From: a virus
Virus record (IMG/VR): IMGVR_UViG_3300042691_009741
Coordinates: 1 to 35,034 of that record
DNA: 35,034 bases
Reading direction: 5' to 3' (one strand)
Numbering within the stretch: position 1 is the first letter of the stretch; the number at the start of each line of letters is the position of its first letter. The notes beneath the pieces were generated by a model that made no database searches, was not told the origin of the DNA, and saw only the letters and a list, made by a program, of their open reading frames with translations. This document shows, one piece after another, positions 4,038 to 28,198 of this stretch. The translations under genes and the position numbers were made by a program.

Positions 4038-4895
4038 ATGACACAGGGTATTAATAAATTTTTAGAAGGCGCTGATAATTTTGGCACCAGTATTGGGGGC
4101 AGTTTTGGCGGCGCCATCAAATCAGGAGTAGGACTTGTACAAGGAGTACGGCAGTTGTTTGGTGCTCCTGGTAGTAATACAGTGTCTCCAGGTGCAGAAG
4201 GTGACGGAGTCTATGGTTCACGTCAAGCCAACTTTGTACAAAGCAACAGTACAGACTGGCGAGTTAGATTAAGTATGCCCCCAATAGATGCTTGGAAATC
4301 GCCGCCTAAAAATGCAATCTTTGGATTTCAAAATCCTATTTTAACTCCGATCGTAAACACCAACGGGTTTATTTTTCCCTATACACCTTCGGTTACCCTA
4401 ACACATTCTGCAAGTTATTCTTCGATGGATCCTATACATAATAATTATCCGTTTTCTGCCTATGAAAACAGTAAACTGGACAAAATTACTATTGTAGGGG
4501 ATTTTTACTGTGAAACTTCTTTTGATGCGGCATACTGGATTGCCGGTGTACATTTTTTTAGAACTATGACTAAAATGTTTTCTGGTGAAGGTCCAAACGC
4601 CGGATCGCCTCCACCCATCATCAAGTTAAACGGATACGGTGATTATGTGTTTAAAAATGTACCTGTGGCAGTTACACAGTTTTCAGTAGAACTGCCTAAA
4701 GATGTTGATTATATTCCTAGCGGTTTTTTAGCACCTAGTGAAATAGACGCCAGTGCAAAAGGTACTGGCTATGTGCCTGTAAAAAGTGTTTTTACGGTGA
4801 CGTTGTTGCCTATGTACAGTAGAGAATCCGTTAGAAAGTTTAATCTAAATGATTTTGCCACAGGAAAATTAATCAATGGAAAAGGATTTATCTAA
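4038..4895 (+). CDS. Baseplate tail-tube initiator/cap protein (gp54/gp48-like)
   Basis: 285 residues. The N-terminal ~65 residues are Gly/Ala-rich and likely flexible or membrane-like helical (GGSFGGAIKSGVGLVQGV). The body begins at DWRVRLSMPP (~72-81) and contains the segment FIFPYTPSVTLTHSASYSSMDPIHNNYPF (~111-139) and HFFRTMTKMFSG (~174-185), then PPPIIKLNGYGDYVFKN and VELPKDVDYIPSG. This pattern is typical of the marine T4-like proteins annotated as baseplate tail-tube cap (gp48) or initiator (gp54); those two T4 proteins are related to each other and I cannot decide between them by reading. Known role of both: they sit on the baseplate hub and nucleate tail-tube assembly. It is the first gene of the plus-strand late operon, with GGAG 10 bases upstream, and its TAA stop overlaps the next ATG (TAATG). 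Confidence 0.75.
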   Translation: MTQGINKFLEGADNFGTSIGGSFGGAIKSGVGLVQGVRQLFGAPGSNTVSPGAEGDGVYGSRQANFVQSNSTDWRVRLSMPPIDAWKSPPKNAIFGFQNPILTPIVNTNGFIFPYTPSVTLTHSASYSSMDPIHNNYPFSAYENSKLDKITIVGDFYCETSFDAAYWIAGVHFFRTMTKMFSGEGPNAGSPPPIIKLNGYGDYVFKNVPVAVTQFSVELPKDVDYIPSGFLAPSEIDASAKGTGYVPVKSVFTVTLLPMYSRESVRKFNLNDFATGKLINGKGFI

Positions 4896-10328: not shown

Positions 10329-13300
10329 ATGGGTAGCATAGATAGACAAAATCGATTAATTGCCGCGGAAGACTGGACAAAAATCTACCAGAGTTTCCGT
10401 AATGCAGACTTTCAAAGTTACGACTTTGACAACTTACGCCGTACGATGATTGCGTACCTGCGTGAAAATTATCCGGAAGATTTTAACGATTACATTGAGT
10501 CCAGTGAGTACTTGGCCCTTATTGATCTTATTGCATTCTTAGGTCAAAACCTAGCATTCAGATTCGATTTAAATGCTCGTGATAACTTCCTTGAACTAGC
10601 AGAACGCAGAGAAAGCGTTCTACGTCTAGCACGTCTGCTATCCTACAACCCCAAAAGAAATATTCCTGCCAACGGTCTATTAAAGTTCTCTGCTTTAAGT
10701 ACCACTGAAGAAATTATCGACAGCAACGGTAGAAACTTATCTGGACAAACAGTGCTGTGGAATGATCCCAGTAATGCCAATTGGTATGAACAATTTATTA
10801 AGATTATTAATTCGTCGATGAACGAGATAATACAATTTGGCCGTCCTCAGGATAAAAAAGTTATTGGTGGCGTAGCAACAGAACAATATAGGATTAACGG
10901 ATTAAACACAGAAATACCTGTATACAGTTTTACTAAAAACATCGATGGCCGCACCATGGACTTTGATGTTGTTTCTACAGTGTTTAAAGATTCAGATTCA
11001 ATATACGAAGAAGCACCGCTTCCAGGAAATAACCTAGCATTTTTATATAGAGATGATGGCGGTGGCCCAGCAAGTAGTAACACTGGATTCTTTTTACACT
11101 TCCGTCAAGGCACACTAGAAGAAGGAAACTTTGTAGTAGATCGTCCTACACCCAACGAAGTTGTAGATTTAGATTCATCGGGTATTAATAACACTGACAT
11201 TTGGTTGTACGGTACTAATACACTAGGCGTAGAGTCGGTATTATGGACACAGGTAGAATCAATTGTTGGAAATAACATCATTTATAACTCTACACAAAGA
11301 AATTCTAGAAAACTTTATAGTGTACAAACTAGGTCTAATGACCGTGTTAGATTAGCATTTGCCGATGGTGTGTTTGGAGATCTTCCACAAGGATCATTTA
11401 AAGCATATTATCGCATCAGCAACGGTCTAGCATATAAGATTTCTCCAGGTAATATAAAAAGTGTTACCATAGATATCCCTTACTTGAATCGTAATGGTAA
11501 GGCAGAAACTCTATCAATTGTGTTATCATTAAAATACACAGTTACCAATGCCAGTTCGCAAGAGTCAACTGATTCTATTAAACAAAATGCTCCAGGCACG
11601 TACTATACTCAAAATAGAATGATAACAGGAGAGGATTATAATATCCTACCACTGAGCGTCAGCCAGGAAATTTTAAAAGTAAAATCTGTCAATAGATCAA
11701 GTTCAGGAATCAGTCGATACTTTGATTTAAAAGATGTAACTGGAAAATATAGCAGTACAAATCTATTTGGAACAGATGGAATTATTTACAAAGAAAATTT
11801 TACAGAAACATTTAATTTTAGTTTTGCAACAAAAAGCGAAATTGAAAGTGTTGTGGTAAATCAAATTATACCTGTGCTTAAAAAGAAAACAGTTTATGAT
11901 TTTTATTTAGATAATTTCTCAAGTATTAACTTGGGCGTTCCGTTCATTGCATGGAACCGTATCACTAAAGCCACAAATTTATCAACGGGATTTTTCTCAA
12001 ACAATACCACAGGGGAATCTAGGACAGTCGGTGCATTCACGAGTTCGAATCTTCGTTATGCAGTAAACGACAGTTTGTTAAAGTTTGTTCCGCCTCCAGG
12101 ATTTAGAGCGTTTGATTCTAAAAATAATTTCATTGCAAATAGTGCGCCCGTAGTGCCAGGCGAAAAGCCTTATATCTGGACAAAGGTAGTTAACATCACA
12201 GGCAGCGGAGTTTTTGGTGCAACAAATACTTTACCAAACGGTGACGGACCAATTAAACTTAATGAATTAATACCATCTGCGGCAGAATTACAAAACATTA
12301 TTCCTAAATTTGTTAGAGAAATATCTGACAGTGTAAGAAATAGAATATTTGATTTAATATTTGCACAAAAAGAATTTGCATTACGCTACGATGCTGTTGA
12401 CACAGCATGGAAAATTATCACTGAATCCAATGTAGATAAACTGTCTAATTTTAGTTTAGGAAAAACAGGCGACATCAGTAATCAACGACTTGATGCAAGT
12501 TGGTTAATTTTATTCGAAACTGACGGCGAAACATACACAGTTACTAATCGTTCTACTAGATATGTTTTTGAAAGCATCAAGGAAGTTCGATTCTTTTTCG
12601 ACAGCGGCGACAAAATTTATGATACTAATACTGGAAAAATTGTCAAAGATAAAATTTCCGTATTAAGTATCAATACTAAACCACTAGATGTATATCCGCT
12701 GAACAGAAATTATGACTGGGAAATTCTTGACGAGTTTAAGGGTGCTGACGGCTACATTGACAGTAAGAAAATCAGTGTAACATTCACCGACAAAGACGAA
12801 GACGGTGTAATTGATGATCCTGAAATTTTTGAAAGAATTGTAGAAACCAGCGTTGAGCCTACTAAAAAACTTATTTTTCAACAACGTCGAACTGGTCTTG
12901 ACGGCGTCACGGATTATTTTTATATCGCTAACGATGACGATTTAATCCTTACGTACAATACACAAACAGAAATTGACACCAGTGTACTAGGGGGGATTGC
13001 TGAAGGACAACTAGTATATTGTTTAGATGATAAACTAGTAAAAAGATTTATTAGAACTGGTCAGCCTCAATTCCAAGTAACCAATGAGTATAGAGGGTTC
13101 TTTGGCCGCGGCGACATAAAGTTTCAATATGTACATAGTGCAGACAGTAGTGCTAGATTAGATCCCAGCGCCACAAACATCATGGATGTCTATGTTTTAA
13201 CAAAGGCATATGACACAGAATATCGCCGTTGGGTAAAACAAGAAAGTCTTGCAAAACCACTGCCACCGAGTAGTGATGCACTTTTTATTAACTTTGGAAC

Positions 13301-13787
13301 AACACTGCAAAAAGTTAAAGCGATCAGTGATGAAGTTATATACCATCCTGTGAAATATAAAGAAATATTTGGCCCAACTGCACCTACAAGTCTACAAGCA
13401 ACATTTAAAATAGTTAAAAATAATAATGTATCAGTCAGTGACAGCGATATCAAATCTTCAGTGACAAATGCAATAAACGAATTTTTTGCAATTGAAAATT
13501 GGGAATTTGGAGACACATTCTTCTTTGCTGAGTTGACAACTTATATAATGAATAGAGTTGCTCCAAATATCAGCAATATAATAATTGTTCCTAAAGACCC
13601 AAGTTTAAGTTTTGGTAGTCTGTATGAAATTAAATCTAACTCTGATGAAATCTTTATCAGTTCAGCAACAGTTAACGATATTGAAATTATCAGCGAAATA
13701 ACAGCATCGAGAATACGAGCCAACGGCACAGTGACAACAACACTGAATAATAATACTGGTATACAGAGTTCAAATTATGGCATTTAA
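10329..13787 (+). CDS. 6: gp6-like baseplate wedge protein, enlarged
   Basis: 1152 residues against 660 in T4. The N-terminus (DFDNLRRTMIAYLRENYPEDFNDYIESSEYLALIDLIAFLGQNLAFRFDLNARDNFL, ~32-88) is the conserved gp6 helical start, followed by RRESVLRLARLLSYNPKRNIPANG (~93-116). VRLAFADGVFGDLPQGSFKAYYRISNG (~337-363) and APGTYYTQNRMITGEDYNILP (~420-440) are typical of gp6/baseplate-J relatives. The C-terminus (~1030-1100: SDIKSSVTNAINEFFAIENWEFGDTFFFAELTTYIMNRVAPNI) is the wedge dimerisation-type end. An EF-hand-like loop D821-K-D-E-D-G-V-I-D-D-P-E832 lies in a segment not seen in T4. Known role: gp6 forms the inner baseplate ring with gp25 and gp53. Its end overlaps the next gene by 11 bases, implying coupled translation. 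Confidence 0.9.
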   Translation: MGSIDRQNRLIAAEDWTKIYQSFRNADFQSYDFDNLRRTMIAYLRENYPEDFNDYIESSEYLALIDLIAFLGQNLAFRFDLNARDNFLELAERRESVLRLARLLSYNPKRNIPANGLLKFSALSTTEEIIDSNGRNLSGQTVLWNDPSNANWYEQFIKIINSSMNEIIQFGRPQDKKVIGGVATEQYRINGLNTEIPVYSFTKNIDGRTMDFDVVSTVFKDSDSIYEEAPLPGNNLAFLYRDDGGGPASSNTGFFLHFRQGTLEEGNFVVDRPTPNEVVDLDSSGINNTDIWLYGTNTLGVESVLWTQVESIVGNNIIYNSTQRNSRKLYSVQTRSNDRVRLAFADGVFGDLPQGSFKAYYRISNGLAYKISPGNIKSVTIDIPYLNRNGKAETLSIVLSLKYTVTNASSQESTDSIKQNAPGTYYTQNRMITGEDYNILPLSVSQEILKVKSVNRSSSGISRYFDLKDVTGKYSSTNLFGTDGIIYKENFTETFNFSFATKSEIESVVVNQIIPVLKKKTVYDFYLDNFSSINLGVPFIAWNRITKATNLSTGFFSNNTTGESRTVGAFTSSNLRYAVNDSLLKFVPPPGFRAFDSKNNFIANSAPVVPGEKPYIWTKVVNITGSGVFGATNTLPNGDGPIKLNELIPSAAELQNIIPKFVREISDSVRNRIFDLIFAQKEFALRYDAVDTAWKIITESNVDKLSNFSLGKTGDISNQRLDASWLILFETDGETYTVTNRSTRYVFESIKEVRFFFDSGDKIYDTNTGKIVKDKISVLSINTKPLDVYPLNRNYDWEILDEFKGADGYIDSKKISVTFTDKDEDGVIDDPEIFERIVETSVEPTKKLIFQQRRTGLDGVTDYFYIANDDDLILTYNTQTEIDTSVLGGIAEGQLVYCLDDKLVKRFIRTGQPQFQVTNEYRGFFGRGDIKFQYVHSADSSARLDPSATNIMDVYVLTKAYDTEYRRWVKQESLAKPLPPSSDALFINFGTTLQKVKAISDEVIYHPVKYKEIFGPTAPTSLQATFKIVKNNNVSVSDSDIKSSVTNAINEFFAIENWEFGDTFFFAELTTYIMNRVAPNISNIIIVPKDPSLSFGSLYEIKSNSDEIFISSATVNDIEIISEITASRIRANGTVTTTLNNNTGIQSSNYGI

Positions 13788-16700
13788 TAACGATCAAATT
13801 GACCCAATTTTACCGATTGCAAATGACGGTGAAAAAACTTCACTGAGTTTTGTACCTAAATATTTTAGAACTAGTTCTAATCGAAAATTTTTAAGTGCCA
13901 CCATCGATCAGATGATGTCTGAGGGTGAAGTAGAAAAAATAAATGCCTTCATAGGTAGAAAAACTTTCGAGCCGTATCGCGTTTCTGACAAATACCTACA
14001 AGGTGCTACAAAACAGCGAGAAGATTATCAATTTGAACCAGCAGTAATTATAAAAGATTCACTGGATAATGTTACATTCTTTAAAGATTATCCAGACTAT
14101 ATTAATCAGTTAGCAAGTTTTAACAGCGGTGACACTGATCATAATAAAATTAACAGTCAAGAATTTTATTCTTGGGATCCGCATTTTGACTGGGATAAAT
14201 TTGTCAACTACCGAGATTACTATTGGTTGCCACTAGGCCCTGTTAGCGTTCCTATCTCTGGACAATCAGATAACATTACCAGCACATATACTATTAAACT
14301 TGTTGACGATGGCGATAACCGTGCATATGTGTTTACCCCAGATGGACTAACAAGTAACCCTAATTTAAAATTATACAGAGGACAAACCTATAATTTTCAA
14401 GTGGACTGTCCAGATTTTGGAATTGCATTTAAAACTGTAAGAGAAACAGGCGACAGTAATTTTTATACACAAGGTGTTAGTACTGGAAATCAATATATTG
14501 AAAGTGGCAGTATTGAGTTTACTGTGCCTACTGATGCACCTAATATCATTTACTATGTTAGTAAAACTGATGTAAACACTGGTGGTATCTTTAAAATTTA
14601 TGACGTAACTGATGCATCGAGTATTGATGTTGAAAAAGAAGTACTCGGCAAGCAATCATATCGATCATCGAATGAAGTAGAATTGTCCAACGGCATGAAA
14701 GTATTTTTTCAAGGAAGAGTAACACCAGAAAAATATTCTTCAGGAAACTGGTACGTTGAAGGTGTCGGCACTGCAATCAAGTTGGTCAAAGAATCAGATC
14801 TAGCAACACCGTCTACATATTCGACAAGTACTAGCATTGAATTTGACAACGAGCCTTTTGATAGCCAAGGATTTGAAGTATCGGGCAATCTTCCAAGCAG
14901 TAAAGATTATATTTTAATTAATAGATCTAGTAAAGATTTAAATCCGTGGAGTAGATTCAATCGATGGTTCCACAAAGATGTCATAGAAGCATCATCTCAA
15001 ATCAACAATATACCAGCAATACTTGACCAGTCACAACGTGCCACTCGTCCTATTATTGAATTTGAAGCAGATTTAAAATTATGGAATTTTGGTCGTCAAT
15101 TTAAAACTAATGTGACATTGGTCGATTCTTTCACTAGAGATGTTTTCAGCACAATTGAAGGAAGTGTAGGCTACAACATTGACGGAGTTGATTTGTTGGA
15201 AGGCATGCGTGTATTGTTTACCGCAGATCCTGATGTACAGGTTAATGGTAGAATTTTTAAAGTTAAATTTATAACACATCTTGCTGTTAAAAGATTAACG
15301 TTGGTAGAAGAAGTTGACACCAATCCAATAGAAGGTGAAACAGTATTAGTGCTAGACGGTGTAATAAACAAAGGTAAAATGTTTTACTATACCGGAAATA
15401 TATGGAAAGAAGCACAGCAAAAAAATTCAGTGAATCAATCACCTTTATTTGATGTATTTGACGAAACTGGTATTAGTTACGGCGACAATGTAGTTTATCC
15501 AGGTACTACTTTTGCGGGTACACGAATTTTTGGATACCGCCCTGGCAGTAATATTGACAGTGAATTAAATTTTGGAATTGCTTATAAAAATATAGGCAAT
15601 ATCGGTGACATATTATTTGACTTTAATTTACAAAAAGATTCTTTTATCTATAAGAACATTGCAGACATTGTAACAATTACTCTTGATAAAGGTTATTTGA
15701 AAAAGTCAGTAGATTTGACAAATGTTTCATTTGTCAACGGATGGGTCAAGGCAATCGCTGACAGTCGACAATATGTTGTTCAACAGTTTGATGGCTCAGA
15801 CAGAATAAACTATTTCCCTATAGATGTCTATGATCAAAGCGGACTGCTGACTGATCTAGAAACACGAGTTTATATCAACGGTAAAATTATCAGTGACCCA
15901 CTAGATTATGTTATTGAAATTATAAACGATGTTGCGTTTGTCAATTTACGCAAAGATTTATTGCCTACAGAAAGTGTCGTAGTTAAGAGCACAAGTTCTG
16001 CTAAAAAAAATAACAATGGATATTATGAAATTCCCAGCAATTTAGAAAGTAATCCTAGCAATTTAGTTATTGGTGATTGCACACTGGGAGAAGTAATTAA
16101 TCATTTAAAAACCATAGGCAATTCTAGACTAGATTTCAACGGTGATATTCCTGGTACAGGAAATTTACGAGACCTATCTAACTTATCAGCATATGGTACA
16201 AAGATAATTCAGCACAGCGGTCCTTTGACACCGGTTATCTATCATTTTACAAACAAAGATCATAACATAGTAAATGCTCTACGATATTCAAAAGATGAAT
16301 ACAGCAAGTTTAAGCGAAATTTCTTGCGTGTGGCCAGCACACTTGGATTTGATGGCATTACCAGAGTACATTTGGATTTAGTGTTAAAAGAATTAGTCAA
16401 AGACAAGACTAAAACCATGCCGTTTTTCTTCACAGATATGGCGCCGTTTGGTGGAAGTGTGATATTTGATCAAGAAGTCATAGACAATTCTATAACAGAA
16501 TATCCATTGATTTTTGACTTTGACTTGAACACGTTGTCTGACAAAGCAGTTATAGTATATCTAAATGAAGAACAACTATTACATGGCCGTGACTATGAGT
16601 TCTTTAATACAAACTTTATTCGTATTTTAAAACCAATCGTTGCTGAAGATGACCTTAAAGTGGTCCAGTATGAAAACACCAATGGTTGTTATATTCCTGC

Positions 16701-19700
16701 AACACCAACAAAATTAGGACTATACCCGTTATATGAACCTAAACTGTATCTCGATGATACACTAGTAACACCACAGAATGTTATTCAAGGACACGACGGT
16801 AGTATTCTTTTAGCCTACAACGATTATCGAGATGATTTAATTTTAGAATTAGAAAAAAGAATCTACAATAACGTCAAAATAAAATACAATACAGAACTGT
16901 TTGACATTTCTAATTTTGTCAGCGGATACTATAGAAAGAATGATTTAACTAAAAAACAGTTAGATGATACTATTCGTCAAGACTTCTTAAAATGGAGTAG
17001 ATTCATTTCTGAAGATTATACCAAGCATACATTTTTTGACTCCAATAATAGTTTTACATATAACTATAAAAACTTTTCTGGCAACGATGGATCAGAAATT
17101 CCAGGACATTGGAGAGGCGTTTACAAATACATGTATGACACTGATCGTCCACATTCTCATCCTTGGGAAATATTAGGATATAGTCAGCAGCCAGAATGGT
17201 GGACAGATGTCTACGGTCCTGCACCATATACACGTGATAATCTTGTGCTATGGAATGATATAGCCGAAGGCATCATTAGAGAACCAAATAAACTAGTAAC
17301 ACGAAATGCTAAATTTGCAAGACCGTCGATTGTAAATCATATTCCAGTGGATGAAGAAGGTACTTTATTATCTCCATTAGAGTCTGTTGCTGTTAAAGAT
17401 TATGTTTTTTATCTTGCCGAAGGTGCATTTAGTTTTGGCGATTCTGCACCAATAGAAAATGCATGGAGACGTAGCAGTGATTATCCTTTTAGTTTAATTA
17501 CAGGTATCACAATACTTCGTCCTGCAAAATCATTTGCAACAATATATGACAGAGCCAGACAGATTAGAGACTTCACAGGACAACTAGTCTATAAAACCAG
17601 CAATGGTCTAACCCGATTCACTCAAAGAAATTTAGAATTTCCTAATTCTGTATCTGCTACTTCTAGGATCTTTACCAGCGGCCTAGTTAATTTTATCAGT
17701 GAATATTCGACATCTAAGAGTCAAGATAATTTTGAAACCTATAAAGAAAATTTAACCAATCTTCAAGTTAAATTGTCTACAAAGATAGGTGGGTTTATCA
17801 CTAAAGAAAAGTTTAAATTGGTATTAGATAGTCGTAGTCCGCTGAATCAAAAAAATATTTTTGTTCCTTTTGAAAACTATAATATTATTTTAAACACAAG
17901 CACACCAGTATCAACTATTAATTATAGTGGTGTGATTATTGAAAAACAACCTAAAAACTTTATTGTTAAGGGGTACAATCTAGCACTACCAGAATTTAAA
18001 TATTTCAAACATATTGAAATAGTAAGTGATCCAGTATCTATCATAGGCGGAATCAGTGAAAGTTTTGTGGAATGGGACAGAGAAAAGTTTTATAATAAAA
18101 CTGAAATTGTTCGATATGACAATAACTATTATAGAGTAACAGCAAGCCATACCAGCACTAATACTTTCGAAATAAAATATTTTGTTAAGTTGCCTAGCCT
18201 GCCAATTACAGGTGGCCGAGAAATAATTTCAAGAAGTACATTTGAAACTACAGAATCCACACTGCACTATGGCTCAGAACTTAAAACAGTGCAGAACGTA
18301 GTTGATTTCCTTGCAGGATACGGCAAATGGTTAACTGCACAAGGATTTAATTTTGATTTTTTCAACACCGAACTTTCAACAGTAACTGATTGGAATACTG
18401 CAATCAAAGAGTTTGCATTCTGGACCACTCAGAACTGGAGTGCAGGCTCAGTTATCAGTTTAAGCCCAGGCGCAGACGAAATTAAATTTACTGCCGATTC
18501 AGCAATAGTTGACAACATCAATGACAGTTTTTATGAATACAGCGTTTACAAGCAAGACGGTATTATTCTTGATCCATCTTTTATAAACACTGTACGTAAA
18601 GATAATAACTTTACAATACGACCAAGAAATACTGCTGACGGAATTTACCACGTCACTTTAAACTTAGTTCAAAAAGAACACGTTGTTTTATTAGACGACG
18701 TCACAGTGTTCAACGATGTAATATATGATCAAGTACAAGGGTACCGTCAAGAGCGTATTAAAGTAATTGGTTACAGAACCGGCGGCTGGCTAGGTAGTTT
18801 TAGCATTCCAGGATTTATCTACGACAATGCAGTTGTCACCGAGTGGACACAATGGAAAGACTATGCGCTAAGTGACACTGTCAAGTATAAAGAATTTTAT
18901 TATAGTGCTAGACAAAATGTAGCAGGCTCTGAAGAATTTGATCCGACAAACTGGAATAGACTGTTATCCAAGCCCGAGAGTAAACTAATCCCTAACTGGG
19001 ATTATAAAGCAAATCAATTTTTTGATTTTTATGATCTTGACACTGATAGTTTTGACGTTGACCAACAAACTATTGCAAAACACTTAATCGGATACCAACG
19101 TAGAGATTATTTAGAAAACATTATCAACGATGATGTTGCACAATACAAATTTTATCAAGGAATGATCCGCGATAAAGGAACTCAAAACGTACTAAACAAA
19201 TTATTTGATCCACTGAGTTCAGCAGATAAAGATAGTTTAGAATTTTATGAAGAGTGGGCAATTCGTCTTGGCACATACGGAGCAATATCTGCATTTGAGG
19301 AAGTAGAATACAAAATTGACGAATCAAAAATGTTGATTAACCCTCAGCCTTTTGAATTAGTAGATAGTGTTGATAATTCGTTCAATGACTTTGTCTATAG
19401 AATTACACCTAATCAAGTATATGTACCTAGTGAAAATTATAATCATGCACCATTCCCAAGTCATATTCCAACAGAATACTTTGTTGATACTCCGGGATAC
19501 GTTCGCAGAGAAGATGTAGATTTTGTCTTTAATAGCAAAGATGAAATCTCTGCGTTGGAATTTTCGCAGTTATCAGAAGGTACACGTCTATGGATCGGCA
19601 ATGACAAAAATACTTGGGGAGTTTATAGATTCACAGCCGTTTCTGCACGAGTATCTACTGTTGTTCTTTCAGACGAAACAATTCGTATTACATTTTCTAG

Positions 19701-22700
19701 CAACAAAGACACTGACCTATTAGTTGATGACTATATTGGAATTGATGCAACATCGCCAATAGACGGCCTTTATAAAATTACCAATGCTGGATATAATTTT
19801 ATTGAAATAAATGCCGGCGACATTACAGAAGACGATTTGTTGTTGGCCACAGTAGAGAACGCATTCATAATCTATAAATTTAGTTCTTTAAGACTTAAAG
19901 AGCGTTTAGTCAACGGGCAAACACTGCCAGCATCCATTGACAGATTAGACGAAATTGAACTTCCTGTAAAAGAAAACGGCGATCTAGTATGGATTGATGG
20001 AGTAGATAACAACTGGAGTGTATGGTTGTATGAAAACAATTATGCTATAAAACCAGTAACTGACGAAACAGATAATTTTGCAAGTACTGTTGCCGTTGAT
20101 AAAAATGAAACTGTAATGGCTGTCAGGGCCGGCACGGAAACTGATGATCAAGTATTATACTTTACTAGACCCGCTTCCACATTTAATTGGGCGTTTGCAG
20201 AATCTATTAATGCAGGTGCTACATCTCTATTGAATACAAATGGTTCTTTTGGTCAAGCATTAGCATTGTCATCAGATGGTGTCTTATTAGCAGTAGGAGT
20301 TCCTGCATCGAATACTAATCGCGGACACGTTTCATTGTTTACAAAAAATTCTGCAAATATTTTTCAATTCACGAAGAATCTTTTACCAGGCACACGTCGA
20401 GTAGATGAATTGTTTGGTGCAGAATTAGCGTTTACTAACAATAATTTAGTAGTAGTTTCTAAAGGAACTGCTGGTGCGGTATCTCCTGCAATTTTCCTTT
20501 ATGATTTAGAAGGTAATGAATTGGATACAGTAACTAGTTTTAGTTCATTATTTGAAATTACAGATATTTCTGTAGGAAATAATTTGCTGGTCGTTTCATT
20601 TGCAAATGAAACAGTTAACGTCTACGATGTATCCAGCAATGAATTAGACTTAATCGATACTGTTACGTTTGGAGATTTAGTTCCTAATACAAATATTAGT
20701 ATTTCCACAGGCTCTAATTTTGCAGAATCAGTGGCAATTACCCAAGACGGCAAATACCTTGCAGTCGGAGCCCCGGATTATACAGGTCTAAATTCACAGC
20801 AAGGGTGTGTTGTACTGTTTGAATTAATCAACGAACAGTATGTTGCACAATACATTATCGAAGGTCCGGGCGACATTTCGGCAGGAAGATTCGGATCAAA
20901 GGTTAAATTTAATCTACAAGGTGATCAACTAGTTGTATATGCTTCGGGAATTAAACACGATACAAGTACAACATTTGATAATACTACCACAGTCTTCGAT
21001 AAACGAAAAACTCGATTTGTAGATTTGGAACCAGGCTATGGCTCTGTTTCTATGTTTGACAAATACGATACAAGATTTGTGTTTGCTGAAACTTTAGAAC
21101 TCGACAATGCTCTCGGCATACGCTATGGAAATTCTTTAAATTTCCGCAAGTCAGTGTACATAGGGGATCCTGCAAAGTCTCGTGGGGCAGTATACGAATT
21201 CACAAGCCCAACTAAGAGTTGGAGAAAATATCAAACTCCTAGCCCGGCTGTGGATGTTAATAAAATTAAATCCATCTTCTTATATGACACCGACACTAGC
21301 AAGATTTTACAATATCTAGATTTTGTTGATCCTTTACAGGGAAAAATACTAGGACTAGCAGAACAAGAATTAAGTTATAAAACTTATTATGATCCTGCAA
21401 CATATATCATCGGTACAGAAAATATAAATGTAGATCAACTTACTGGATGGAACGGAAAACAAGTTGGAAAGTTATGGTGGGATCTTGCCGGTTCTAAATT
21501 CATTAATACCTATCAAGGCAGTGTAGTCTTTAAATCCAATAACTGGAATAATAGATTCAACGACACTGATGTTGTAGTATGGGAGTGGGTCAGTTCAATT
21601 TATACACCTAGTGTATGGGATAGTCTTGCAGACACAGAAGAAGGTCTAGCACTGGGCATCAGCGGCACAAGTAAATATGGCGACCTTGCATATTCTGTGA
21701 CACAGCAATTCGATGCTATATCTGAATCTATCTCAACAACATATTATTTCTGGGTAAAAAATAAAAAAACTGTTCCCCCTGTTGAAGGAAGAAACTTCTC
21801 AGCACAGGATGTTGCCGCATATATTGCTGATCCTAAGAGTAAAGGCATCAAGTACATTACATTACACGGACCACGACAGTTCAGTCTAGTCAATTGCAAA
21901 GACTTGATCACAGATAAAAAAGTTGCAATTAACTTTAGATACTGGACCATAGACAACACAGAATTGAATATACATAGTCATTATCAATTACTAGCCGAAG
22001 GCGACGAAACAAAACAATTAAACAAATACATTGAAAAGAAATGGTTAGAAAGTTTAATTGGGTTCGACGAGTTAGGTAATGAAGTACCAGATCCTAAATT
22101 ACCGTTAAAACTTAAATACGGAATTTTAAACAAGCCTAGACAAAGCATGTTTGTTAATCGTATTGAAGCATTAAAACAATTCTTTGAACGTGTAAACCGT
22201 ACTCTTATCAAAACTAACATCGTCGACGATGTAGATCTGTCTAAATTATACGAAAAAGATCAAGAGCCATCTGTATATTCTTTAAAATATGATGCTGTAA
22301 AAGATCTATATTCTGAATTAAGATTTATCAACGTTGCTCCAAGCCGAACAGCCATACTTGATCCTGTAATTGAAAACGGTAGAATAATTCGAGTTAACAT
22401 TATAGATTCAGGTCGAAACTATAATGATTTAAGTTACGACAGCAGTCAAGGTCGTCCGAAAAAAGGACCATATGTAAACATATCCGGCATTGGTACTGGT
22501 GCAAAACTCAGCACAATTGTCAATGATAAAGGCGAAATTATTAAAGTTGCCGTTGAAAATACAGGCAGTGGATACCAAGAATCTACAACATTGACTGTAC
22601 GTCCATTCACAGCATTAGTAAGAACAGATGAAAACTCAGGCGGCAAATGGGCATTATATATCTGGGACGCAGATAACAAAATCTGGATTAAGAATCTAGT

Positions 22701-25700
22701 TCAGACCTACGATGTTGCCAAGTACTGGTCTTTGACAGATTGGTATGCAGATGGTTATAATCAGTTTACAAAAATTAGTATAGTTATTGATTTTTCTTAT
22801 CAGTTGGCAGGACTAACTGCTGACATCGGTGATATAATTAAAATTAAAAACGTAGGATCATCAGGCTGGTTATTACTAGAAAAAAATACCGACAGTACAA
22901 ATTTATTAGATATTAATTCAAGTTTCAAAGTTATAGGTAGACAAAACGGAACATTGCAATTTAATAAAAATATCTACGAATTTGCAAACAGCAATGTTGG
23001 ATTCGATGGACCATTCTACGACATTGATGTATTCGATGACGAGCCTAAAGAAGAACTACGTATTATTGTTGATGTATTAAAGAACAATATATTTGTTGAT
23101 CAACTAACACAAGAGTACAATGCACTATTCTTTGCAAGTTTACGATACGTATTCTCAGAACAGATTTTTGTGGATTGGGCATTTAAAACTAGTTTTATTA
23201 AATCCAAACATAATCTTGGAGAATTAAAACAAAAAGTTACCTATCAAAACGATAATTTAGATAGTTATGAAGACTACATTAATGAAGTCAAACCTTATAG
23301 AACTAAAATTAGAGAGTTTGTCAGCGCCTACGATAAAACTGAGCAGTCTCGTACTCAAGTTTCAGACTTCGACTTACCGTCGATCTATAATCCAGATACT
23401 GGAAAGATAGAAGCAATTACTACACAGATTGATAACAATGTAATTATTGTTGATAACAATATAATTCTTACAGAACCTTATAGCGACTGGTATTACAATC
23501 TAGGACACTCTATCAAATCTATAGAAGTACGTAATCCAGGTAGCGGATATAAAACTGCACCTCAAGTTATAATTAGTGGAATTAGTACTATTCAGGCAAC
23601 TGCTACGGCTTATATAAGCCAAGGCAAACTTATTAAAATTGTAGTAGATGAGCCTGGACAGGGTTATTTAACAACACCAACAGTTGAACTTGATGGCGGC
23701 TTAGAGCCAGATGGCATACCTGCACAAATAAGTATTGAACTTGCAAGAGGACTTGTTAGATCTAACAAAGTTGGAATAAAATTTGATAGAGTATCTCCAA
23801 GATATCAAATTTCATCGCTGGATGCTACACAACAATTTACAGGATCGGGATCGCAAACTCGATTTGATTTAAAATGGCCTGCGGATATTCGTCCTAACAC
23901 CTACGTTGTTTCTATCAATGGACTAGATATCTTAGACAGCGACTTTACAATAACAAATGTAAAAGACCTTACCTCAGATTATACTAGATATTTTTCTAGA
24001 ATCACATTTGATACTGCTCCGTCGAATCAAAGTACTATTATAGTTTCCTATAAAAAGGACACCAGTTTATTAACAGCCGCTGATAGAATACAATTCTTCT
24101 ATGATCCAGCAAGCGGACAACTAGGCAAAGATCTTGGTCAATTAATGCAAGGTGTTGACTATGGTGGTGTAGAAATATCAGGATTGAATTTTGACATTGG
24201 ATCTGGTTGGGACGCACTACCGTGGTTCGTCGGTGGGTGGGACAGTTTTGACACTGAATTTAAAGATAGATTATTTGTTGGTACAAATAGAAACTTAGAC
24301 ATTGGATATATTCCTGACGACGGAGTAGAAATCAACGTCTACTTAAACAACGTAAAGATTGATGATTCTAACTACGATCAAGTTACTCTAGCACAAGATA
24401 TTGTTACACAAGAACAAACAACACTTGATGTTTTAGATAATGAACTACAAGACTTGGTACAAATTCGTGCTGATAAAAATGCACTAAGACAGGCTGCTGT
24501 TGACACAGTTGTACTAGAACAAAATGAGTTAGATTCTCTGACCGCTCAGTACAACCAAGCATTGTTAGATAATAACATAGTACTGGCCATGCAGATTCAA
24601 GCCCAGGTTGTTATTCAAGCGAACGTAGTTCTTGCGGCAAACAGTGCATTATCTACAGCAATTGTTCAGTACAATGTATCGGTGACCGCAGTTAATAACA
24701 AACAAGCGCAAGTAGCCCAACAACAAACTATTCTAAACTCAGCACTATCTGCGCTGAACAGTTTGGATCCAATCACCAACACCAATGCTGTGATGAATAG
24801 TTTGTACGGTGATGCCAGCACACAAGTTTTTGTATTACCTAACAATGTTCTACTAACATCGAGCGATAAAATTGTTTTACGTGAAAGCACCAGCGACGGC
24901 AGTGTTAAACCAGACAATCAAACATTTGACGTTGATATAACCGGTGGCGATCTTGCTTATACAAGTGCTCGCGGTATTAATCCAGAAGCAATTAATATCG
25001 ACGGCGATGCATTTGTATCTTCTTGGTCTAGTCATGCACCAGAAGAAGTGGTGCCAGGGCAAATAGTTGACAGTGTTGACATTCAAGTGTACAACAAAGT
25101 CAGTGACGGTGCTCCAACTATTCTAAATAAATTTTACAAAGTTAAATCAACGTCAGACATTACCTTTGATATAGGTCAACGTCCAGGAACTGTGGATTCG
25201 TTAATAGTTAAAATAGATAATAATATTGCAAGACTATTAACTGATTACGTTGTAGATTATAAAGATCAGCAAATACGATTAATAACTGCTCCTGTAGTTG
25301 GTACTGAAATTTCTATAACCAGTTTGAGTCAAAACGGCTCAGGCATTTTAGATTTAGATTTCTTTATTGCAGACGGAGTAACTACAGATTATGTCACAGC
25401 CGCTAGATCGGATGAGGCATACACAGCCTTTGTTACCATAGATGGTGTTACTGAATCTGTAACAACTTTCAATGCTGACGAAACATTTGATACACAGGGC
25501 AATATTGTAATTAGATTTTCAAATGCACCTGAGTCAGGATCAATTATTAATTATACATTGATCAGAGGTTTCGTCAATACAATTAGCAAAGTGCAAAAAG
25601 AAACAATCTTTCATGACGGTACAACTGCTACATACACATTAGAATATACTCCGGCTATAAGAAAGCCTTTAGAAAGCAATGTCATTGTTATTGTTGATGG

Positions 25701-27561
25701 AAAGATCCTAAAGTCTATTGATAATTATTATTTTGATGTGGTAGGTACTTCTAGAACATACACTGTAAGTCCTGCAGACTATGCGTTTAACTCCATAGAT
25801 CCAAACGATATACAAGTGTTTGTCAACGGACTACCAATTCAGCGAGCCCGGGATTGGAACTGGGTATCTACTAATAATGAATTGAAATTAAAACGCAATG
25901 CGGCAGCAGTTGGCGATGTTGTTACTTTAGCAATTTTTAAAGACGCAAATTATTTAATTGATGGTAACTCGATTACATTCTTAGACAGTTATCCAGACAA
26001 TACATTAATTGATGTCACCACTTTTAATAATCACGATATATTGAACATACAACGATTCAATGATCAAGTAGTCTTTGACTCTAGTCTAGTACCGGGCACC
26101 GTTGAGTATAAAAAATATACACAGTTAGGTGCAGGAAGAATTGAATTGAACAAACAATCTATTGGGCCAGAATATGTATGGGTAACAGTCAACGGTGAAT
26201 TATTAGTGCCAGATGTTGAATACGTTCTTGAAAACAATCTAAAGTATGTTAGAATTTCTAGACCGTTGTTAGTAACTGACATCGTTGAGGTTATAGTGTT
26301 TAGCAGTGAAACAACTCGCTCGGCATTCGGCTATAGAATATTCAAAGACATGGTCAATAGAGTTGTTTACAAACGAGTTGACGATTCGACCAGTACAGAG
26401 TTGGCACAGCCATTAAATGGATTTGACGCCAAGATTACAGTAGTTGATGCAGATAAACTAGCCACTCCTAACGCTATTAAAAATGAGCCAGGTATAATTT
26501 ACATAGACAAAGAACGCATTGAATACTTGAAGAAAACAGGTAATGTTTTAAGTCAACTACGTCGCGGTACACTGGGTACTGGTATTAAAAATCAATATCC
26601 AGTAGGTACTCGTGTGAGAGATCAAGGAAACGCTAACACAGTACCTTACAACGATGAAACGCAAACAATAGAAGCAATATCTGACGGCTACTTAACAGCC
26701 AGTGAATTTTATGCAAATTCTTTAGGTGTAATAGTAACTAGTTTTACTTACAACTTTAATAATAACACAGCCTTCCCGCTAGGCGGGCAAGTGTGTACTG
26801 TTATAGGTACAGGGTTCCGTGACAACGTTAAAGTATATGTTGGCGATACAGAATGCCCGACCACGTACATAAGTGAAACTCAGTTAACATTTATTACTCC
26901 AGCAAAGAGTGTAGGAGCATATGATTTAGTAATATTCAATCCTGCAAAGACTACGCCGTTTATTATTCCAGCAACCAGTGTGGTAGTTCCTGCATCGATT
27001 AAATACGTGCAGATTTTACTGCCTTTTGCACCACGTCCAAACCCTGCAACAGAAACTGGTTGGTACAAAAATACTAGAACAATACCAGTAACACGCATTC
27101 AACCAGGCAGAGGTTATGTAATAGCATCTGTAGGAACTACTAATTTTGGTTCAATAGGTGCTGGAGCAAATGTCGTTGGCACTGGATTCATAGCATCAGC
27201 CGCAGGCACAGGTACAGGCACAGTTATTGATTATACCAGTATTCCTTATGAATATTGGGAAAGCATGGACATAGAAGTGTTTGTGGGCGGTAAAAGATTA
27301 CGTAAGAGTCCAATTGAAGTCTATGACGAAACACTTGGACCAGATAGTCCCAGTGGTAATAAAATGTTAGAAGCAGAATTTGCTGTAAACAAGAACGTAG
27401 GCGCCTATGTTAGATTAACAACACCACCAGAACCTGGAGTTAAGGTCGTAATTCAAAAACGAACTGGTAAAACATGGGTATCTCAGGGAGTAGCATTATC
27501 AGACGCTACCAGCGACCCTGCTAAATTCATCCGCGCCAAGGGCGTAGATTTGTCTGAATAA
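13777..27561 (+). CDS. Giant mosaic baseplate/adhesin structural protein (4594 aa)
   Basis: About half a megadalton, with no stop, starting inside the end of gp6. Residues ~20-160 (FVPKYFRTSSNRKFLSATIDQ ... DWDKFVNYRDYYWLPLGP) and ~1108-1160 (PGHWRGVYKYMYDTDRPHSHPWEILGYSQQPEWWTDVYG) resemble large structural proteins of marine T4-like phages. In order: beta modules of the form VxVxxNGxxL...DYxV...IxLxxPxxGDxVxV near 690-735, 922-963, 3375-3425, 3808-3851, 3885-3930, 3969-3990, 4012-4055 and 4134-4177; two Trp/Tyr carbohydrate-binding-like motifs (W1433-Y~1470, W1690-W~1727); a probable seven-bladed FG-GAP-like propeller (2101-2480); GxGY motifs near 2879, 2930, 3255, 3294 and 4444; a coiled coil (3536-3665); an RIEYLKKTGNVLSQLRRGTLGTG segment (~4247-4270); an IPT/TIG domain (~4318-4400). 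It occupies the place of T4 gp7 to gp10, so a gp7-like wedge role plus outward adhesion is inferred. No signal peptide or enzyme motif is seen. Confidence 0.8.
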   Translation: MAFNNDQIDPILPIANDGEKTSLSFVPKYFRTSSNRKFLSATIDQMMSEGEVEKINAFIGRKTFEPYRVSDKYLQGATKQREDYQFEPAVIIKDSLDNVTFFKDYPDYINQLASFNSGDTDHNKINSQEFYSWDPHFDWDKFVNYRDYYWLPLGPVSVPISGQSDNITSTYTIKLVDDGDNRAYVFTPDGLTSNPNLKLYRGQTYNFQVDCPDFGIAFKTVRETGDSNFYTQGVSTGNQYIESGSIEFTVPTDAPNIIYYVSKTDVNTGGIFKIYDVTDASSIDVEKEVLGKQSYRSSNEVELSNGMKVFFQGRVTPEKYSSGNWYVEGVGTAIKLVKESDLATPSTYSTSTSIEFDNEPFDSQGFEVSGNLPSSKDYILINRSSKDLNPWSRFNRWFHKDVIEASSQINNIPAILDQSQRATRPIIEFEADLKLWNFGRQFKTNVTLVDSFTRDVFSTIEGSVGYNIDGVDLLEGMRVLFTADPDVQVNGRIFKVKFITHLAVKRLTLVEEVDTNPIEGETVLVLDGVINKGKMFYYTGNIWKEAQQKNSVNQSPLFDVFDETGISYGDNVVYPGTTFAGTRIFGYRPGSNIDSELNFGIAYKNIGNIGDILFDFNLQKDSFIYKNIADIVTITLDKGYLKKSVDLTNVSFVNGWVKAIADSRQYVVQQFDGSDRINYFPIDVYDQSGLLTDLETRVYINGKIISDPLDYVIEIINDVAFVNLRKDLLPTESVVVKSTSSAKKNNNGYYEIPSNLESNPSNLVIGDCTLGEVINHLKTIGNSRLDFNGDIPGTGNLRDLSNLSAYGTKIIQHSGPLTPVIYHFTNKDHNIVNALRYSKDEYSKFKRNFLRVASTLGFDGITRVHLDLVLKELVKDKTKTMPFFFTDMAPFGGSVIFDQEVIDNSITEYPLIFDFDLNTLSDKAVIVYLNEEQLLHGRDYEFFNTNFIRILKPIVAEDDLKVVQYENTNGCYIPATPTKLGLYPLYEPKLYLDDTLVTPQNVIQGHDGSILLAYNDYRDDLILELEKRIYNNVKIKYNTELFDISNFVSGYYRKNDLTKKQLDDTIRQDFLKWSRFISEDYTKHTFFDSNNSFTYNYKNFSGNDGSEIPGHWRGVYKYMYDTDRPHSHPWEILGYSQQPEWWTDVYGPAPYTRDNLVLWNDIAEGIIREPNKLVTRNAKFARPSIVNHIPVDEEGTLLSPLESVAVKDYVFYLAEGAFSFGDSAPIENAWRRSSDYPFSLITGITILRPAKSFATIYDRARQIRDFTGQLVYKTSNGLTRFTQRNLEFPNSVSATSRIFTSGLVNFISEYSTSKSQDNFETYKENLTNLQVKLSTKIGGFITKEKFKLVLDSRSPLNQKNIFVPFENYNIILNTSTPVSTINYSGVIIEKQPKNFIVKGYNLALPEFKYFKHIEIVSDPVSIIGGISESFVEWDREKFYNKTEIVRYDNNYYRVTASHTSTNTFEIKYFVKLPSLPITGGREIISRSTFETTESTLHYGSELKTVQNVVDFLAGYGKWLTAQGFNFDFFNTELSTVTDWNTAIKEFAFWTTQNWSAGSVISLSPGADEIKFTADSAIVDNINDSFYEYSVYKQDGIILDPSFINTVRKDNNFTIRPRNTADGIYHVTLNLVQKEHVVLLDDVTVFNDVIYDQVQGYRQERIKVIGYRTGGWLGSFSIPGFIYDNAVVTEWTQWKDYALSDTVKYKEFYYSARQNVAGSEEFDPTNWNRLLSKPESKLIPNWDYKANQFFDFYDLDTDSFDVDQQTIAKHLIGYQRRDYLENIINDDVAQYKFYQGMIRDKGTQNVLNKLFDPLSSADKDSLEFYEEWAIRLGTYGAISAFEEVEYKIDESKMLINPQPFELVDSVDNSFNDFVYRITPNQVYVPSENYNHAPFPSHIPTEYFVDTPGYVRREDVDFVFNSKDEISALEFSQLSEGTRLWIGNDKNTWGVYRFTAVSARVSTVVLSDETIRITFSSNKDTDLLVDDYIGIDATSPIDGLYKITNAGYNFIEINAGDITEDDLLLATVENAFIIYKFSSLRLKERLVNGQTLPASIDRLDEIELPVKENGDLVWIDGVDNNWSVWLYENNYAIKPVTDETDNFASTVAVDKNETVMAVRAGTETDDQVLYFTRPASTFNWAFAESINAGATSLLNTNGSFGQALALSSDGVLLAVGVPASNTNRGHVSLFTKNSANIFQFTKNLLPGTRRVDELFGAELAFTNNNLVVVSKGTAGAVSPAIFLYDLEGNELDTVTSFSSLFEITDISVGNNLLVVSFANETVNVYDVSSNELDLIDTVTFGDLVPNTNISISTGSNFAESVAITQDGKYLAVGAPDYTGLNSQQGCVVLFELINEQYVAQYIIEGPGDISAGRFGSKVKFNLQGDQLVVYASGIKHDTSTTFDNTTTVFDKRKTRFVDLEPGYGSVSMFDKYDTRFVFAETLELDNALGIRYGNSLNFRKSVYIGDPAKSRGAVYEFTSPTKSWRKYQTPSPAVDVNKIKSIFLYDTDTSKILQYLDFVDPLQGKILGLAEQELSYKTYYDPATYIIGTENINVDQLTGWNGKQVGKLWWDLAGSKFINTYQGSVVFKSNNWNNRFNDTDVVVWEWVSSIYTPSVWDSLADTEEGLALGISGTSKYGDLAYSVTQQFDAISESISTTYYFWVKNKKTVPPVEGRNFSAQDVAAYIADPKSKGIKYITLHGPRQFSLVNCKDLITDKKVAINFRYWTIDNTELNIHSHYQLLAEGDETKQLNKYIEKKWLESLIGFDELGNEVPDPKLPLKLKYGILNKPRQSMFVNRIEALKQFFERVNRTLIKTNIVDDVDLSKLYEKDQEPSVYSLKYDAVKDLYSELRFINVAPSRTAILDPVIENGRIIRVNIIDSGRNYNDLSYDSSQGRPKKGPYVNISGIGTGAKLSTIVNDKGEIIKVAVENTGSGYQESTTLTVRPFTALVRTDENSGGKWALYIWDADNKIWIKNLVQTYDVAKYWSLTDWYADGYNQFTKISIVIDFSYQLAGLTADIGDIIKIKNVGSSGWLLLEKNTDSTNLLDINSSFKVIGRQNGTLQFNKNIYEFANSNVGFDGPFYDIDVFDDEPKEELRIIVDVLKNNIFVDQLTQEYNALFFASLRYVFSEQIFVDWAFKTSFIKSKHNLGELKQKVTYQNDNLDSYEDYINEVKPYRTKIREFVSAYDKTEQSRTQVSDFDLPSIYNPDTGKIEAITTQIDNNVIIVDNNIILTEPYSDWYYNLGHSIKSIEVRNPGSGYKTAPQVIISGISTIQATATAYISQGKLIKIVVDEPGQGYLTTPTVELDGGLEPDGIPAQISIELARGLVRSNKVGIKFDRVSPRYQISSLDATQQFTGSGSQTRFDLKWPADIRPNTYVVSINGLDILDSDFTITNVKDLTSDYTRYFSRITFDTAPSNQSTIIVSYKKDTSLLTAADRIQFFYDPASGQLGKDLGQLMQGVDYGGVEISGLNFDIGSGWDALPWFVGGWDSFDTEFKDRLFVGTNRNLDIGYIPDDGVEINVYLNNVKIDDSNYDQVTLAQDIVTQEQTTLDVLDNELQDLVQIRADKNALRQAAVDTVVLEQNELDSLTAQYNQALLDNNIVLAMQIQAQVVIQANVVLAANSALSTAIVQYNVSVTAVNNKQAQVAQQQTILNSALSALNSLDPITNTNAVMNSLYGDASTQVFVLPNNVLLTSSDKIVLRESTSDGSVKPDNQTFDVDITGGDLAYTSARGINPEAINIDGDAFVSSWSSHAPEEVVPGQIVDSVDIQVYNKVSDGAPTILNKFYKVKSTSDITFDIGQRPGTVDSLIVKIDNNIARLLTDYVVDYKDQQIRLITAPVVGTEISITSLSQNGSGILDLDFFIADGVTTDYVTAARSDEAYTAFVTIDGVTESVTTFNADETFDTQGNIVIRFSNAPESGSIINYTLIRGFVNTISKVQKETIFHDGTTATYTLEYTPAIRKPLESNVIVIVDGKILKSIDNYYFDVVGTSRTYTVSPADYAFNSIDPNDIQVFVNGLPIQRARDWNWVSTNNELKLKRNAAAVGDVVTLAIFKDANYLIDGNSITFLDSYPDNTLIDVTTFNNHDILNIQRFNDQVVFDSSLVPGTVEYKKYTQLGAGRIELNKQSIGPEYVWVTVNGELLVPDVEYVLENNLKYVRISRPLLVTDIVEVIVFSSETTRSAFGYRIFKDMVNRVVYKRVDDSTSTELAQPLNGFDAKITVVDADKLATPNAIKNEPGIIYIDKERIEYLKKTGNVLSQLRRGTLGTGIKNQYPVGTRVRDQGNANTVPYNDETQTIEAISDGYLTASEFYANSLGVIVTSFTYNFNNNTAFPLGGQVCTVIGTGFRDNVKVYVGDTECPTTYISETQLTFITPAKSVGAYDLVIFNPAKTTPFIIPATSVVVPASIKYVQILLPFAPRPNPATETGWYKNTRTIPVTRIQPGRGYVIASVGTTNFGSIGAGANVVGTGFIASAAGTGTGTVIDYTSIPYEYWESMDIEVFVGGKRLRKSPIEVYDETLGPDSPSGNKMLEAEFAVNKNVGAYVRLTTPPEPGVKVVIQKRTGKTWVSQGVALSDATSDPAKFIRAKGVDLSE
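20077..21216 (+). other. FG-GAP-like seven-bladed beta-propeller within the giant protein
   Basis: Seven blade starts are readable at residues F2101, F2158, F2213, F2259, F2315, F2372 and Y2450, spaced mostly 46-57 residues apart. The best blades read FGQALALSSDGVLLAVGVP and FAESVAITQDGKYLAVGAP, each followed by a G-x-V-x-L-F strand; this is the FG-GAP/integrin-alpha propeller pattern. Such domains usually bind proteins or sugars and often hold Ca2+. The boundaries are approximate. Confidence 0.65.
24382..24771 (+). other. Long coiled-coil insertion within the giant protein
   Basis: Residues ~3536-3665 are rich in Q, A, V, L, N and D, poor in Gly, Pro and aromatics, with heptad-like spacing of L, V and A (LDVLDNELQDLVQIRADKNAL...). 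It interrupts a beta-rich stretch that appears to resume at SLYGDASTQVFVLP. Read as a trimeric or antiparallel stalk inserted between two beta modules. Confidence 0.6.
26728..26976 (+). other. IPT/TIG immunoglobulin-like domain within the giant protein
   Basis: Residues ~4318-4400 show the IPT/TIG order: V-x-S-F-x-Y at the start, PLGGQVCTVIGTGF, a VKVYVGDTECPTTYISETQLTFITPA strand pair (with two Cys), and AYDLVIFNPA at the end. IPT/TIG folds are common in cell-surface receptors and in phage tail proteins. Confidence 0.75.
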
Positions 27562-27583: not shown

Positions 27584-28198
27584 ATGACTAAAGCACCCAA
27601 TGAAAACGCAGGCTTCCACGTAGAAGGGCATATCAAAATTTGGTATCCTGAAACAGGAGAAGTTGCAATCGACAAGCGTAATGCTATACATTACGAAAAT
27701 ATGAGTATCTCTCTTGCAGAAAGTCTTGGCAATGAGGGTAAAGGATTTATCTACGAAATGGCGTTTGGCAATGGCGGCACCACAGTTGACCCAACTGGTA
27801 TTATCACATACTTAACACCAAACACAATAGGTATCAACAGTGGACTTTATAATGAAACCTATGCAAAAGTTGTAGATGATCGTTCAGCAAACAATATTGA
27901 TCCTGTGCGTAACAAGATTGAAACCCGCCACTTGACTGGCACAAACTACACTGACATTATTATTAGTTGTTTGCTTGACTACGGTGAGCCAGCAGACCAA
28001 GAAGCATTTGATAATGCAACATTTACTGAAAGTCAATATGTATTTGATGAACTAGGATTGCGTAGTTACAATCCTAATGGCCCTGGCAGACTACTAACCC
28101 ATGTTATTTTCCATCCAGTACAAAAATCTTTGAACCGATTAATTCAAGTTGACTATACTGTTCGAGTACAAAGTTTAACCGGTTTCAATGAGGCTTAA
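27584..28198 (+). CDS. Conserved T4-like virion structural protein (204 aa)
   Basis: 204 residues with AGGTAG 5-10 bases before the ATG. Recognisable segments are GFHVEGHIKIWYPETGEVAIDKRNAIHYENMS (~10-41), FIYEMAFGNGGTTVDPTGIITYLTPN (~56-81) and YVFDELGLRSYNPNGPGRLLTHVIFHPV (~149-176), the last with beta strands near the C-terminus. Proteins of this type are found next to baseplate and fibre genes of marine T4-like phages, usually labelled only as structural. It is not similar by eye to T4 gp8, gp9 or gp10. Position between the giant wedge/adhesin gene and the first fibre gene suggests a connector between them, which is inference. It sits 2 bases before the next ATG. Confidence 0.7.
   Translation: MTKAPNENAGFHVEGHIKIWYPETGEVAIDKRNAIHYENMSISLAESLGNEGKGFIYEMAFGNGGTTVDPTGIITYLTPNTIGINSGLYNETYAKVVDDRSANNIDPVRNKIETRHLTGTNYTDIIISCLLDYGEPADQEAFDNATFTESQYVFDELGLRSYNPNGPGRLLTHVIFHPVQKSLNRLIQVDYTVRVQSLTGFNEA

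What the first reader, a model, noticed from the sequence alone, without database searches (positions are those of the whole stretch)
13777..27561. Giant 4594-residue mosaic protein in place of T4 gp7 to gp10
One intact gene takes about 39% of the window and is far larger than T4 gp7 (1032 aa). It joins wedge-like N-terminal sequence with many domains normally found on adhesins. It sits directly after gp6, and no separate gp7, gp8, gp9, gp10 or gp11 is seen between gp6 and the fibre genes. It may replace several baseplate proteins with a single chain and also carry host-binding functions. Large structural proteins are known in marine T4-like phages; this particular domain order may be new.
Basis: partly seen in the sequence, partly recalled or inferred. 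Interest (0 to 1): 0.75.

Follow-up and report, generated by a model that had tools for sequence, protein, structure and literature searches.

The report
Giant baseplate-region protein of jumbo phages
This very large phage gene is real and intact, but it belongs to a widespread, already catalogued family of giant virion proteins in jumbo phages; it sits where phage T4 keeps its wedge protein gp7 and may stand in for it, although no sequence or fold comparison proves that yet.

Summary
In detail: window 13777-27561 (+) is one uninterrupted 4594-residue (516 kDa) reading frame overlapping the end of a gp6 homologue, with no separate T4-like gp7, gp8, gp9, gp10 or gp11 before the fibre genes. It is not an assembly join, because 33 distinct relatives from other contigs have the same gene at full length. 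It is not new: it matches phrog_10938 at E=0. The gene is present in about 87 sequenced jumbo phages (PA5oct, Atu_ph07, 121Q/RaK2-like) and in at least 595 IMG/VR contigs, usually in the same gene order, and relatives have been found in virions by mass spectrometry. Seven relatives' genomes lack detectable gp7, gp8, gp9/gp10 N-terminal domain or gp11, although gp6 is detected in all seven, so 'replacement' is plausible. Homology to gp7 is not shown: profile, fold and motif tests give only a weak hit at one KGT motif, whereas cyanophage giants at the same place do carry gp7 motifs. Adhesin-like modules are real (two chitin-binding-type modules, a hypervariable FG-GAP propeller, a TIG domain), but the core architecture is conserved. 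The TIG and coiled-coil inserts are restricted to a few relatives. Best reading: a baseplate wedge/periphery scaffold in the gp7 slot.

The parts
13777..27561 (+). Giant virion structural protein gene, 4594 aa, 516 kDa (phrog_10938 family)
10329..13787 (+). gp6-like baseplate wedge gene, overlaps the giant's start by 11 nt
   Evidence: phrog_10646 E=0 and phrog_219 2.6e-23
13777..14226 (+). Residues 1-150: conserved N-terminal block present in all five divergent jumbo-phage relatives
14797..19476 (+). Residues 341-1900: conserved central block; residues 1000-1880 modelled (pLDDT 85), no solved fold matches it apart from the CBM modules
18070..18162 (+). Residues 1432-1462: CBM5/12 (chitin-binding type) module
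   Evidence: Pfam E=0.013, below cut-off; family profile against PDB E=6e-5; Foldseek
18811..18945 (+). About residues 1679-1723: second CBM5/12-like module
   Evidence: profile against PDB chitin deacetylases E=2.8e-4
19075..19242 (+). Residues 1767-1822: FYxGxIxxKGT helix-turn-helix motif, the only place resembling the gp7 core
   Evidence: best of 90 sliding windows against the marine gp7 profile, P=0.003 before correction; helices in model
20077..21201 (+). About residues 2101-2475: FG-GAP type beta-propeller, hypervariable
   Evidence: FG-GAP_2 over cut-off here and in most relatives scanned; six blade motifs and 37% identity to the nearest relative against about 60% in the neighbouring core blocks
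21202..23451 (+). Residues 2476-3225: second conserved block ending in the helical EVKPYRTKIREF segment
24367..24771 (+). Residues 3531-3665: coiled-coil-like insert, well aligned in only two relatives (L008, L060)
26764..26943 (+). Residues 4330-4389: TIG domain inside an insert (about 4300-4495) filled only in the window and L007/L008 among 33 complete relatives
   Evidence: Pfam TIG E=1.3e-9; occupancy
27584..28198 (+). 204-aa conserved partner gene (phrog_11259), nearly always next to the giant

Best explanation
It is a member of the giant virion structural protein family of T4-superfamily jumbo phages (RaK2/121Q, PA5oct, Atu_ph07 and SCTP-2 group, phrog_10938). Shown: an intact gene, family membership, the gp6-adjacent position, conserved blocks with hypervariable and inserted modules, virion presence of relatives, and absence of recognisable gp7-gp11 in relatives' genomes. 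Inferred: about six copies, one per wedge, bind gp6/gp25/gp53 through the conserved blocks and build most of the baseplate periphery. The FG-GAP propeller, CBM5/12 modules and TIG domain face outward and touch host glycans or neighbouring fibres. The adjacent 204-aa protein and the three fibres, which share one N-terminal domain, dock on it. It would thus occupy gp7's place and do the scaffolding that T4 divides among gp7, gp8, gp9, gp10 and gp11.
For: phrog_10938 E=0. 87 phages, nearly all jumbo, match by tblastn, and PA5oct has the same gene order, with an ESI-MS/MS note on the giant. There are at least 595 IMG/VR relatives and 33 distinct complete ones. Published virion MS covers phAPEC6 gp245, 381.88 kDa, 17 peptides (PMC7247149); the 121Q protein computes to 381.9 kDa. 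CBB_236, which precedes the baseplate-wedge gene CBB_237, gave 21 peptides (PMC5259590). gp7, gp8, gp9/10-N and gp11 models find nothing convincing in seven relatives' genomes, while gp6 is found in all seven. The window protein's 516 kDa is close to the 558 kDa of gp7+gp8x2+gp9x3+gp10x3+gp11x3 per T4 wedge (masses and copy numbers from PMC3004832). Cyanophages carry proven gp7 motifs in a giant gene at the same position.
Against: No significant sequence or fold match to gp7 or any T4 wedge protein. The KGT hit (P=0.003) does not survive correction for 90 windows. In SCTP-2 gp6 lies about 92 kb from the giant, so adjacency is not obligatory. Location inside the virion is not known: PHROGs files the family under 'head and packaging'. 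Absence of gp8-gp11 rests on sequence models; fold-level relatives elsewhere in those genomes were not sought.
Confidence: 0.65

Rival explanations
1. It is a true, highly diverged gp7 homologue swollen by insertions, as in cyanophages. The KGT helix-turn-helix at residues 1767-1822 is the gp7 core, and gp8-gp11 were lost separately rather than fused in.
For: The best of 90 sliding windows against the marine gp7 core aligns KGT to KGT. Position after gp6. Cyanophage giants (3007 to 8573 aa) carry T4 gp7 727-758 and 866-897 motifs in order, with about 2,200-2,900 aa between them.
Against: P=0.003 becomes about 0.25 after correction. The second gp7 motif (SYxIKSxxP...HPxGF) is not found. The model of residues 1000-1880 has no T4 gp7 among its listed PDB matches.
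Confidence: 0.35
2. One chain has absorbed several T4 wedge proteins: recognisable gp8, gp9, gp10 and gp11 units are fused to gp7.
For: Mass per wedge similar to T4 gp7-gp11 combined. Separate genes undetected in relatives. Weak gp10 profile similarity at residues 3989-4085 and 671-740.
Against: hhalign finds no gp8, gp9 or gp11 segment. The gp10 similarity (probability 8%) is weak and recurs at several places in the giant, and gp10 is a trimer in T4 (PMC3004832). Nothing shows that the T4 genes were ever fused.
Confidence: 0.08
3. It is mainly a host-adhesion or side-fibre protein (for example tail whiskers or hairs) and not a wedge subunit.
For: CBM5/12, FG-GAP and TIG modules. Hypervariable propeller. 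Relatives such as CBB and phAPEC6 have whiskers or hairs (PMC5259590, PMC7247149).
Against: Large, strongly conserved blocks including many invariant Trp/Gly/Pro residues. Gene placed in the wedge cluster. Whiskers are not mentioned in the passages read on the PA5oct relative MIJ3.
Confidence: 0.15

Closest known systems
phrog_10938 virion structural protein (121Q gp582, 3323 aa; phAPEC6 gp245)
   Same: Conserved blocks in the same order, gene after gp6, virion protein
   Different: Window protein is about 1270 aa longer: insert at 151-340, longer propeller region and C-terminal extension with coiled coil and TIG
PA5oct gp355 (3857 aa) and Atu_ph07 gp180 (4449 aa)
   Same: Same family; PA5oct has the same gene order from gp46/47/55 to the fibres
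   Different: About 23-39% identity per aligned block; different variable modules; Atu_ph07 has a longer variable middle region
IMG/VR relatives L007/L008 (4694 aa)
   Same: 53% identity, same inserts including the TIG region, same gene order
   Different: Propeller region only 37% identical
Cyanophage giant gp7 / 'baseplate wedge initiator' (S-SZBM1_208, 6619 aa, 71 peptides by MS, PMC9146016)
   Same: Giant gene right after gp6; shares a repeat-type module (window 2845-3001 and 3246-3305)
   Different: Carries T4 gp7 motifs; its genome keeps gp8 and gp9/10 genes; no phrog_10938 match
T4 gp7 (1032 aa)
   Same: Gene position after gp6
   Different: No significant profile match; T4 has separate gp8-gp11

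Membership tests
Jumbo-phage giant virion protein (phrog_10938) | Profile match over the conserved blocks | tested here: met
   E=0, 1069.8 bits, four stretches
Jumbo-phage giant virion protein (phrog_10938) | Position in the gp25-gp6 wedge cluster with the 204-aa partner downstream | tested here: met
   exception SCTP-2 (gp6 elsewhere)
Jumbo-phage giant virion protein (phrog_10938) | Present in virions | not testable with these tools
   Shown for relatives by published MS (PMC7247149, PMC5259590; PA5oct GenBank note); not for this phage
T4 gp7 wedge protein | Match to T4 gp7 profile / phrog_964 | tested here: not met
T4 gp7 wedge protein | FYxxKGT core motif (gp7 727-758) | tested here: inconclusive
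   Residues 1767-1822 rank first of 90 windows, P=0.003 uncorrected
T4 gp7 wedge protein | C-terminal SYxxKSxxP...HPxGF motif (gp7 866-900) | tested here: not met
   No window better than P=0.065
T4 gp7 wedge protein | gp7 fold | tested here: inconclusive
   Residues 1000-1880 modelled, no PDB match with E<=0.001, only CBM modules; rest not modelled
T4 gp8 / gp9 / gp10 / gp11 | Segment of the giant matching their profiles | tested here: not met
   hhalign, best P 0.004 for gp10 with probability 8%
T4 gp8 / gp9 / gp10 / gp11 | 204-aa neighbour is one of them | tested here: not met
   hhalign; AF2 pLDDT 87, Foldseek best hit HFTV1 tail chain E=2.5e-4, no T4 wedge protein listed

The most novel reading that the evidence does not exclude
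A large branch of T4-related jumbo phages builds the whole baseplate periphery from about one 380-580 kDa chain per wedge that is not homologous to gp7-gp11, with host-binding modules inserted into the scaffold itself. That would be a second, independent solution to wedge architecture, beside the swollen gp7 of cyanophages.
Probability: 0.25. Interest if true: 0.65.

Novelty: new member of a known kind. Interest (0 to 1): 0.36.

Why it matters
The protein family is abundant and found in virions of cultured phages, yet it has no assigned role, and residues 1000-1880 match no solved fold apart from two carbohydrate-binding modules. If it is the wedge scaffold, a cryo-EM structure of a cultured relative would show how contractile baseplates can be built without gp7-gp11, and would show whether host-binding modules sit inside the baseplate core rather than on detachable fibres.

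Tried and rejected
Assembly join or frameshift: rejected, 33 distinct complete relatives. Homology of the N-terminal 165 residues to gp7: no signal. Fusion of gp8-gp11: no profile signal. The 204-aa neighbour as gp8, gp9 or gp11: rejected by profile and fold. Direct PDB sequence search with the giant: nothing. DNA-level relatives in cultured phages: none by megablast. A Pfam scan of whole-protein alignments failed for size limits, so segments were scanned instead. Residues 1-1000 and 2470-3260 were not modelled because only two structure jobs were allowed.

Full report
WHAT IS THERE. The frame 13777-27561 (+) is open for 4594 codons and starts inside the last 11 nt of a gp6-like gene. The window is a 35,034-base viral record, presumably a genome fragment. 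Its genes read, on the minus strand, gp46-, gp47- and gp55-like; on the plus strand, a structural protein, gp53-like, a hub protein, gp5-like, gp25-like, gp6-like, the giant, a 204-aa gene, three fibre genes and a short last gene.

IT IS A KNOWN FAMILY. The giant matches phrog_10938 ('virion structural protein', 3324 positions) at E=0. A tblastn search with its first 1400 residues hits 87 cultured-phage records, nearly all jumbo: PA5oct group, Atu_ph07, Phosso, SCTP-2, Vibrio 2.275.O, 121Q/PBECO4/RaK2/CBB and others. PA5oct has the same gene order from the gp46/47/55 genes to the fibres. Thirty-three distinct complete ones are 4452-5262 aa long, in the order gp5-gp25-gp6-giant-204 aa-fibre wherever the contig reaches. 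The window protein is therefore towards the shorter end of its own group, and its core domain order is the group standard.

VIRION PRESENCE. The PA5oct record marks the giant as seen by ESI-MS/MS. phAPEC6 gp245 (381.88 kDa), directly after its baseplate wedge gp244, gave 17 peptides (PMC7247149); the 121Q protein computes to 381.9 kDa. CBB_236, numbered next to baseplate wedge CBB_237, gave 21 peptides (PMC5259590). RsoM2USA ORF361 (2541 aa) was assigned to a gel band (PMC8504454).

ANATOMY. Blocks 1-150, 341-1900 and 2476-3225 are conserved even in distant jumbo phages. Residues 1000-1880 were modelled at mean pLDDT 85. Foldseek against PDB found no match at E<=0.001; the high-probability local matches were mainly chitin-binding CBM5/12 modules, and the same modules came from profile search. 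Residues 2101-2475 contain six FG-GAP-like blade motifs, and FG-GAP_2 passes its cut-off in the window and in five of seven relatives scanned. This region is 37% identical to the nearest relative, against about 60% in the neighbouring core blocks, and its length varies from about 530 to 1300 aa among relatives. A coiled-coil-like insert (3531-3665) and a TIG-containing insert (about 4300-4495) are confined to very few relatives.

IS IT gp7? T4 gp7 motifs are demonstrable in cyanophage giants at the same gene position. gp7 727-758 and 866-897 lie in order in proteins of 3007-8573 aa, with about 2,200-2,900 aa between them. Profile comparison gave P of about 4e-12 and 6e-8 for the two motifs. 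One such protein was seen with 71 peptides in virions (S-SZBM1_208, PMC9146016). The window family fails these tests. There is no profile match and no second motif. The only signal is the FYxGxIxxKGT helix-turn-helix at 1767-1822, first of 90 windows with P=0.003 before correction. The model shows helices on both sides of the KGT turn. I treat gp7 homology as possible but unproven.

ARE gp7-gp11 MISSING? In five cultured relatives' genomes (the Vibrio 2.275.O record is deposited as partial) and two large IMG/VR contigs (369 and 453 kb), the models for gp8 (PF09215), gp9/10 N-terminus (PF07880), gp11 (phrog_963) and gp7 (phrog_964) found nothing over cut-off; three weak PF07880 hits lie below it. 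The gp6 model found its target in all seven at E 3e-11 to 4e-19. T4 was positive for every model. S-SSM7 and S-SZBM1 were positive for gp8 and gp9/10. The gp10 model also gave a C-terminal collar-region hit in a PA5oct fibre gene and sub-threshold partial hits elsewhere. So the jumbo group lacks recognisable gp7-gp11 although its other wedge proteins remain recognisable. The 204-aa neighbour is highly conserved, but by profile and by predicted fold it is none of them; its best fold match is a chain of the Haloferax virus HFTV1 tail.

MECHANISM, PARTLY INFERRED. Position, virion presence and loss of gp7-gp11 make a wedge/periphery scaffold the likeliest role. The protein's 516 kDa is of the size of T4's gp7-gp11 set per wedge (558 kDa from PMC3004832 masses and copy numbers), which shows feasibility only. 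The fast-evolving propeller and carbohydrate-binding modules are the likely host-contacting surfaces. Contacts with gp6/gp25/gp53 and the copy number are inference.

VERDICT. Observation confirmed. Replacement is plausible and supported by absence tests but not demonstrated.

Noticed in passing
28201-30561, 30568-32421, 32486-34036: Three consecutive fibre genes share one N-terminal domain of about 75 aa (phrog_14394, phrog_15511), suggesting that they attach to the same site.
   Followed up: no
5201-8431 and 8465-9835: A tail-lysozyme-type domain matches the N-terminus of the hub-like protein (residues 8-210, phrog_27932), apart from the gp5-like gene.
   Followed up: no
L114-L119: Cyanophage genes right after gp6 encode gp7 with insertions of thousands of residues (3007 to 8573 aa); T4 gp7 motifs survive in order.
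   Followed up: partly
L004: In Salicola phage SCTP-2 the giant follows a 3096-aa gene, and the gp6 homologue lies about 92 kb away.
   Followed up: no
window residues 2845-3001 and 3246-3305 (22309-22779, 23512-23691): Module shared with cyanophage giants, in several copies there; points to exchange or reuse of beta modules between giant baseplate proteins.
   Followed up: partly
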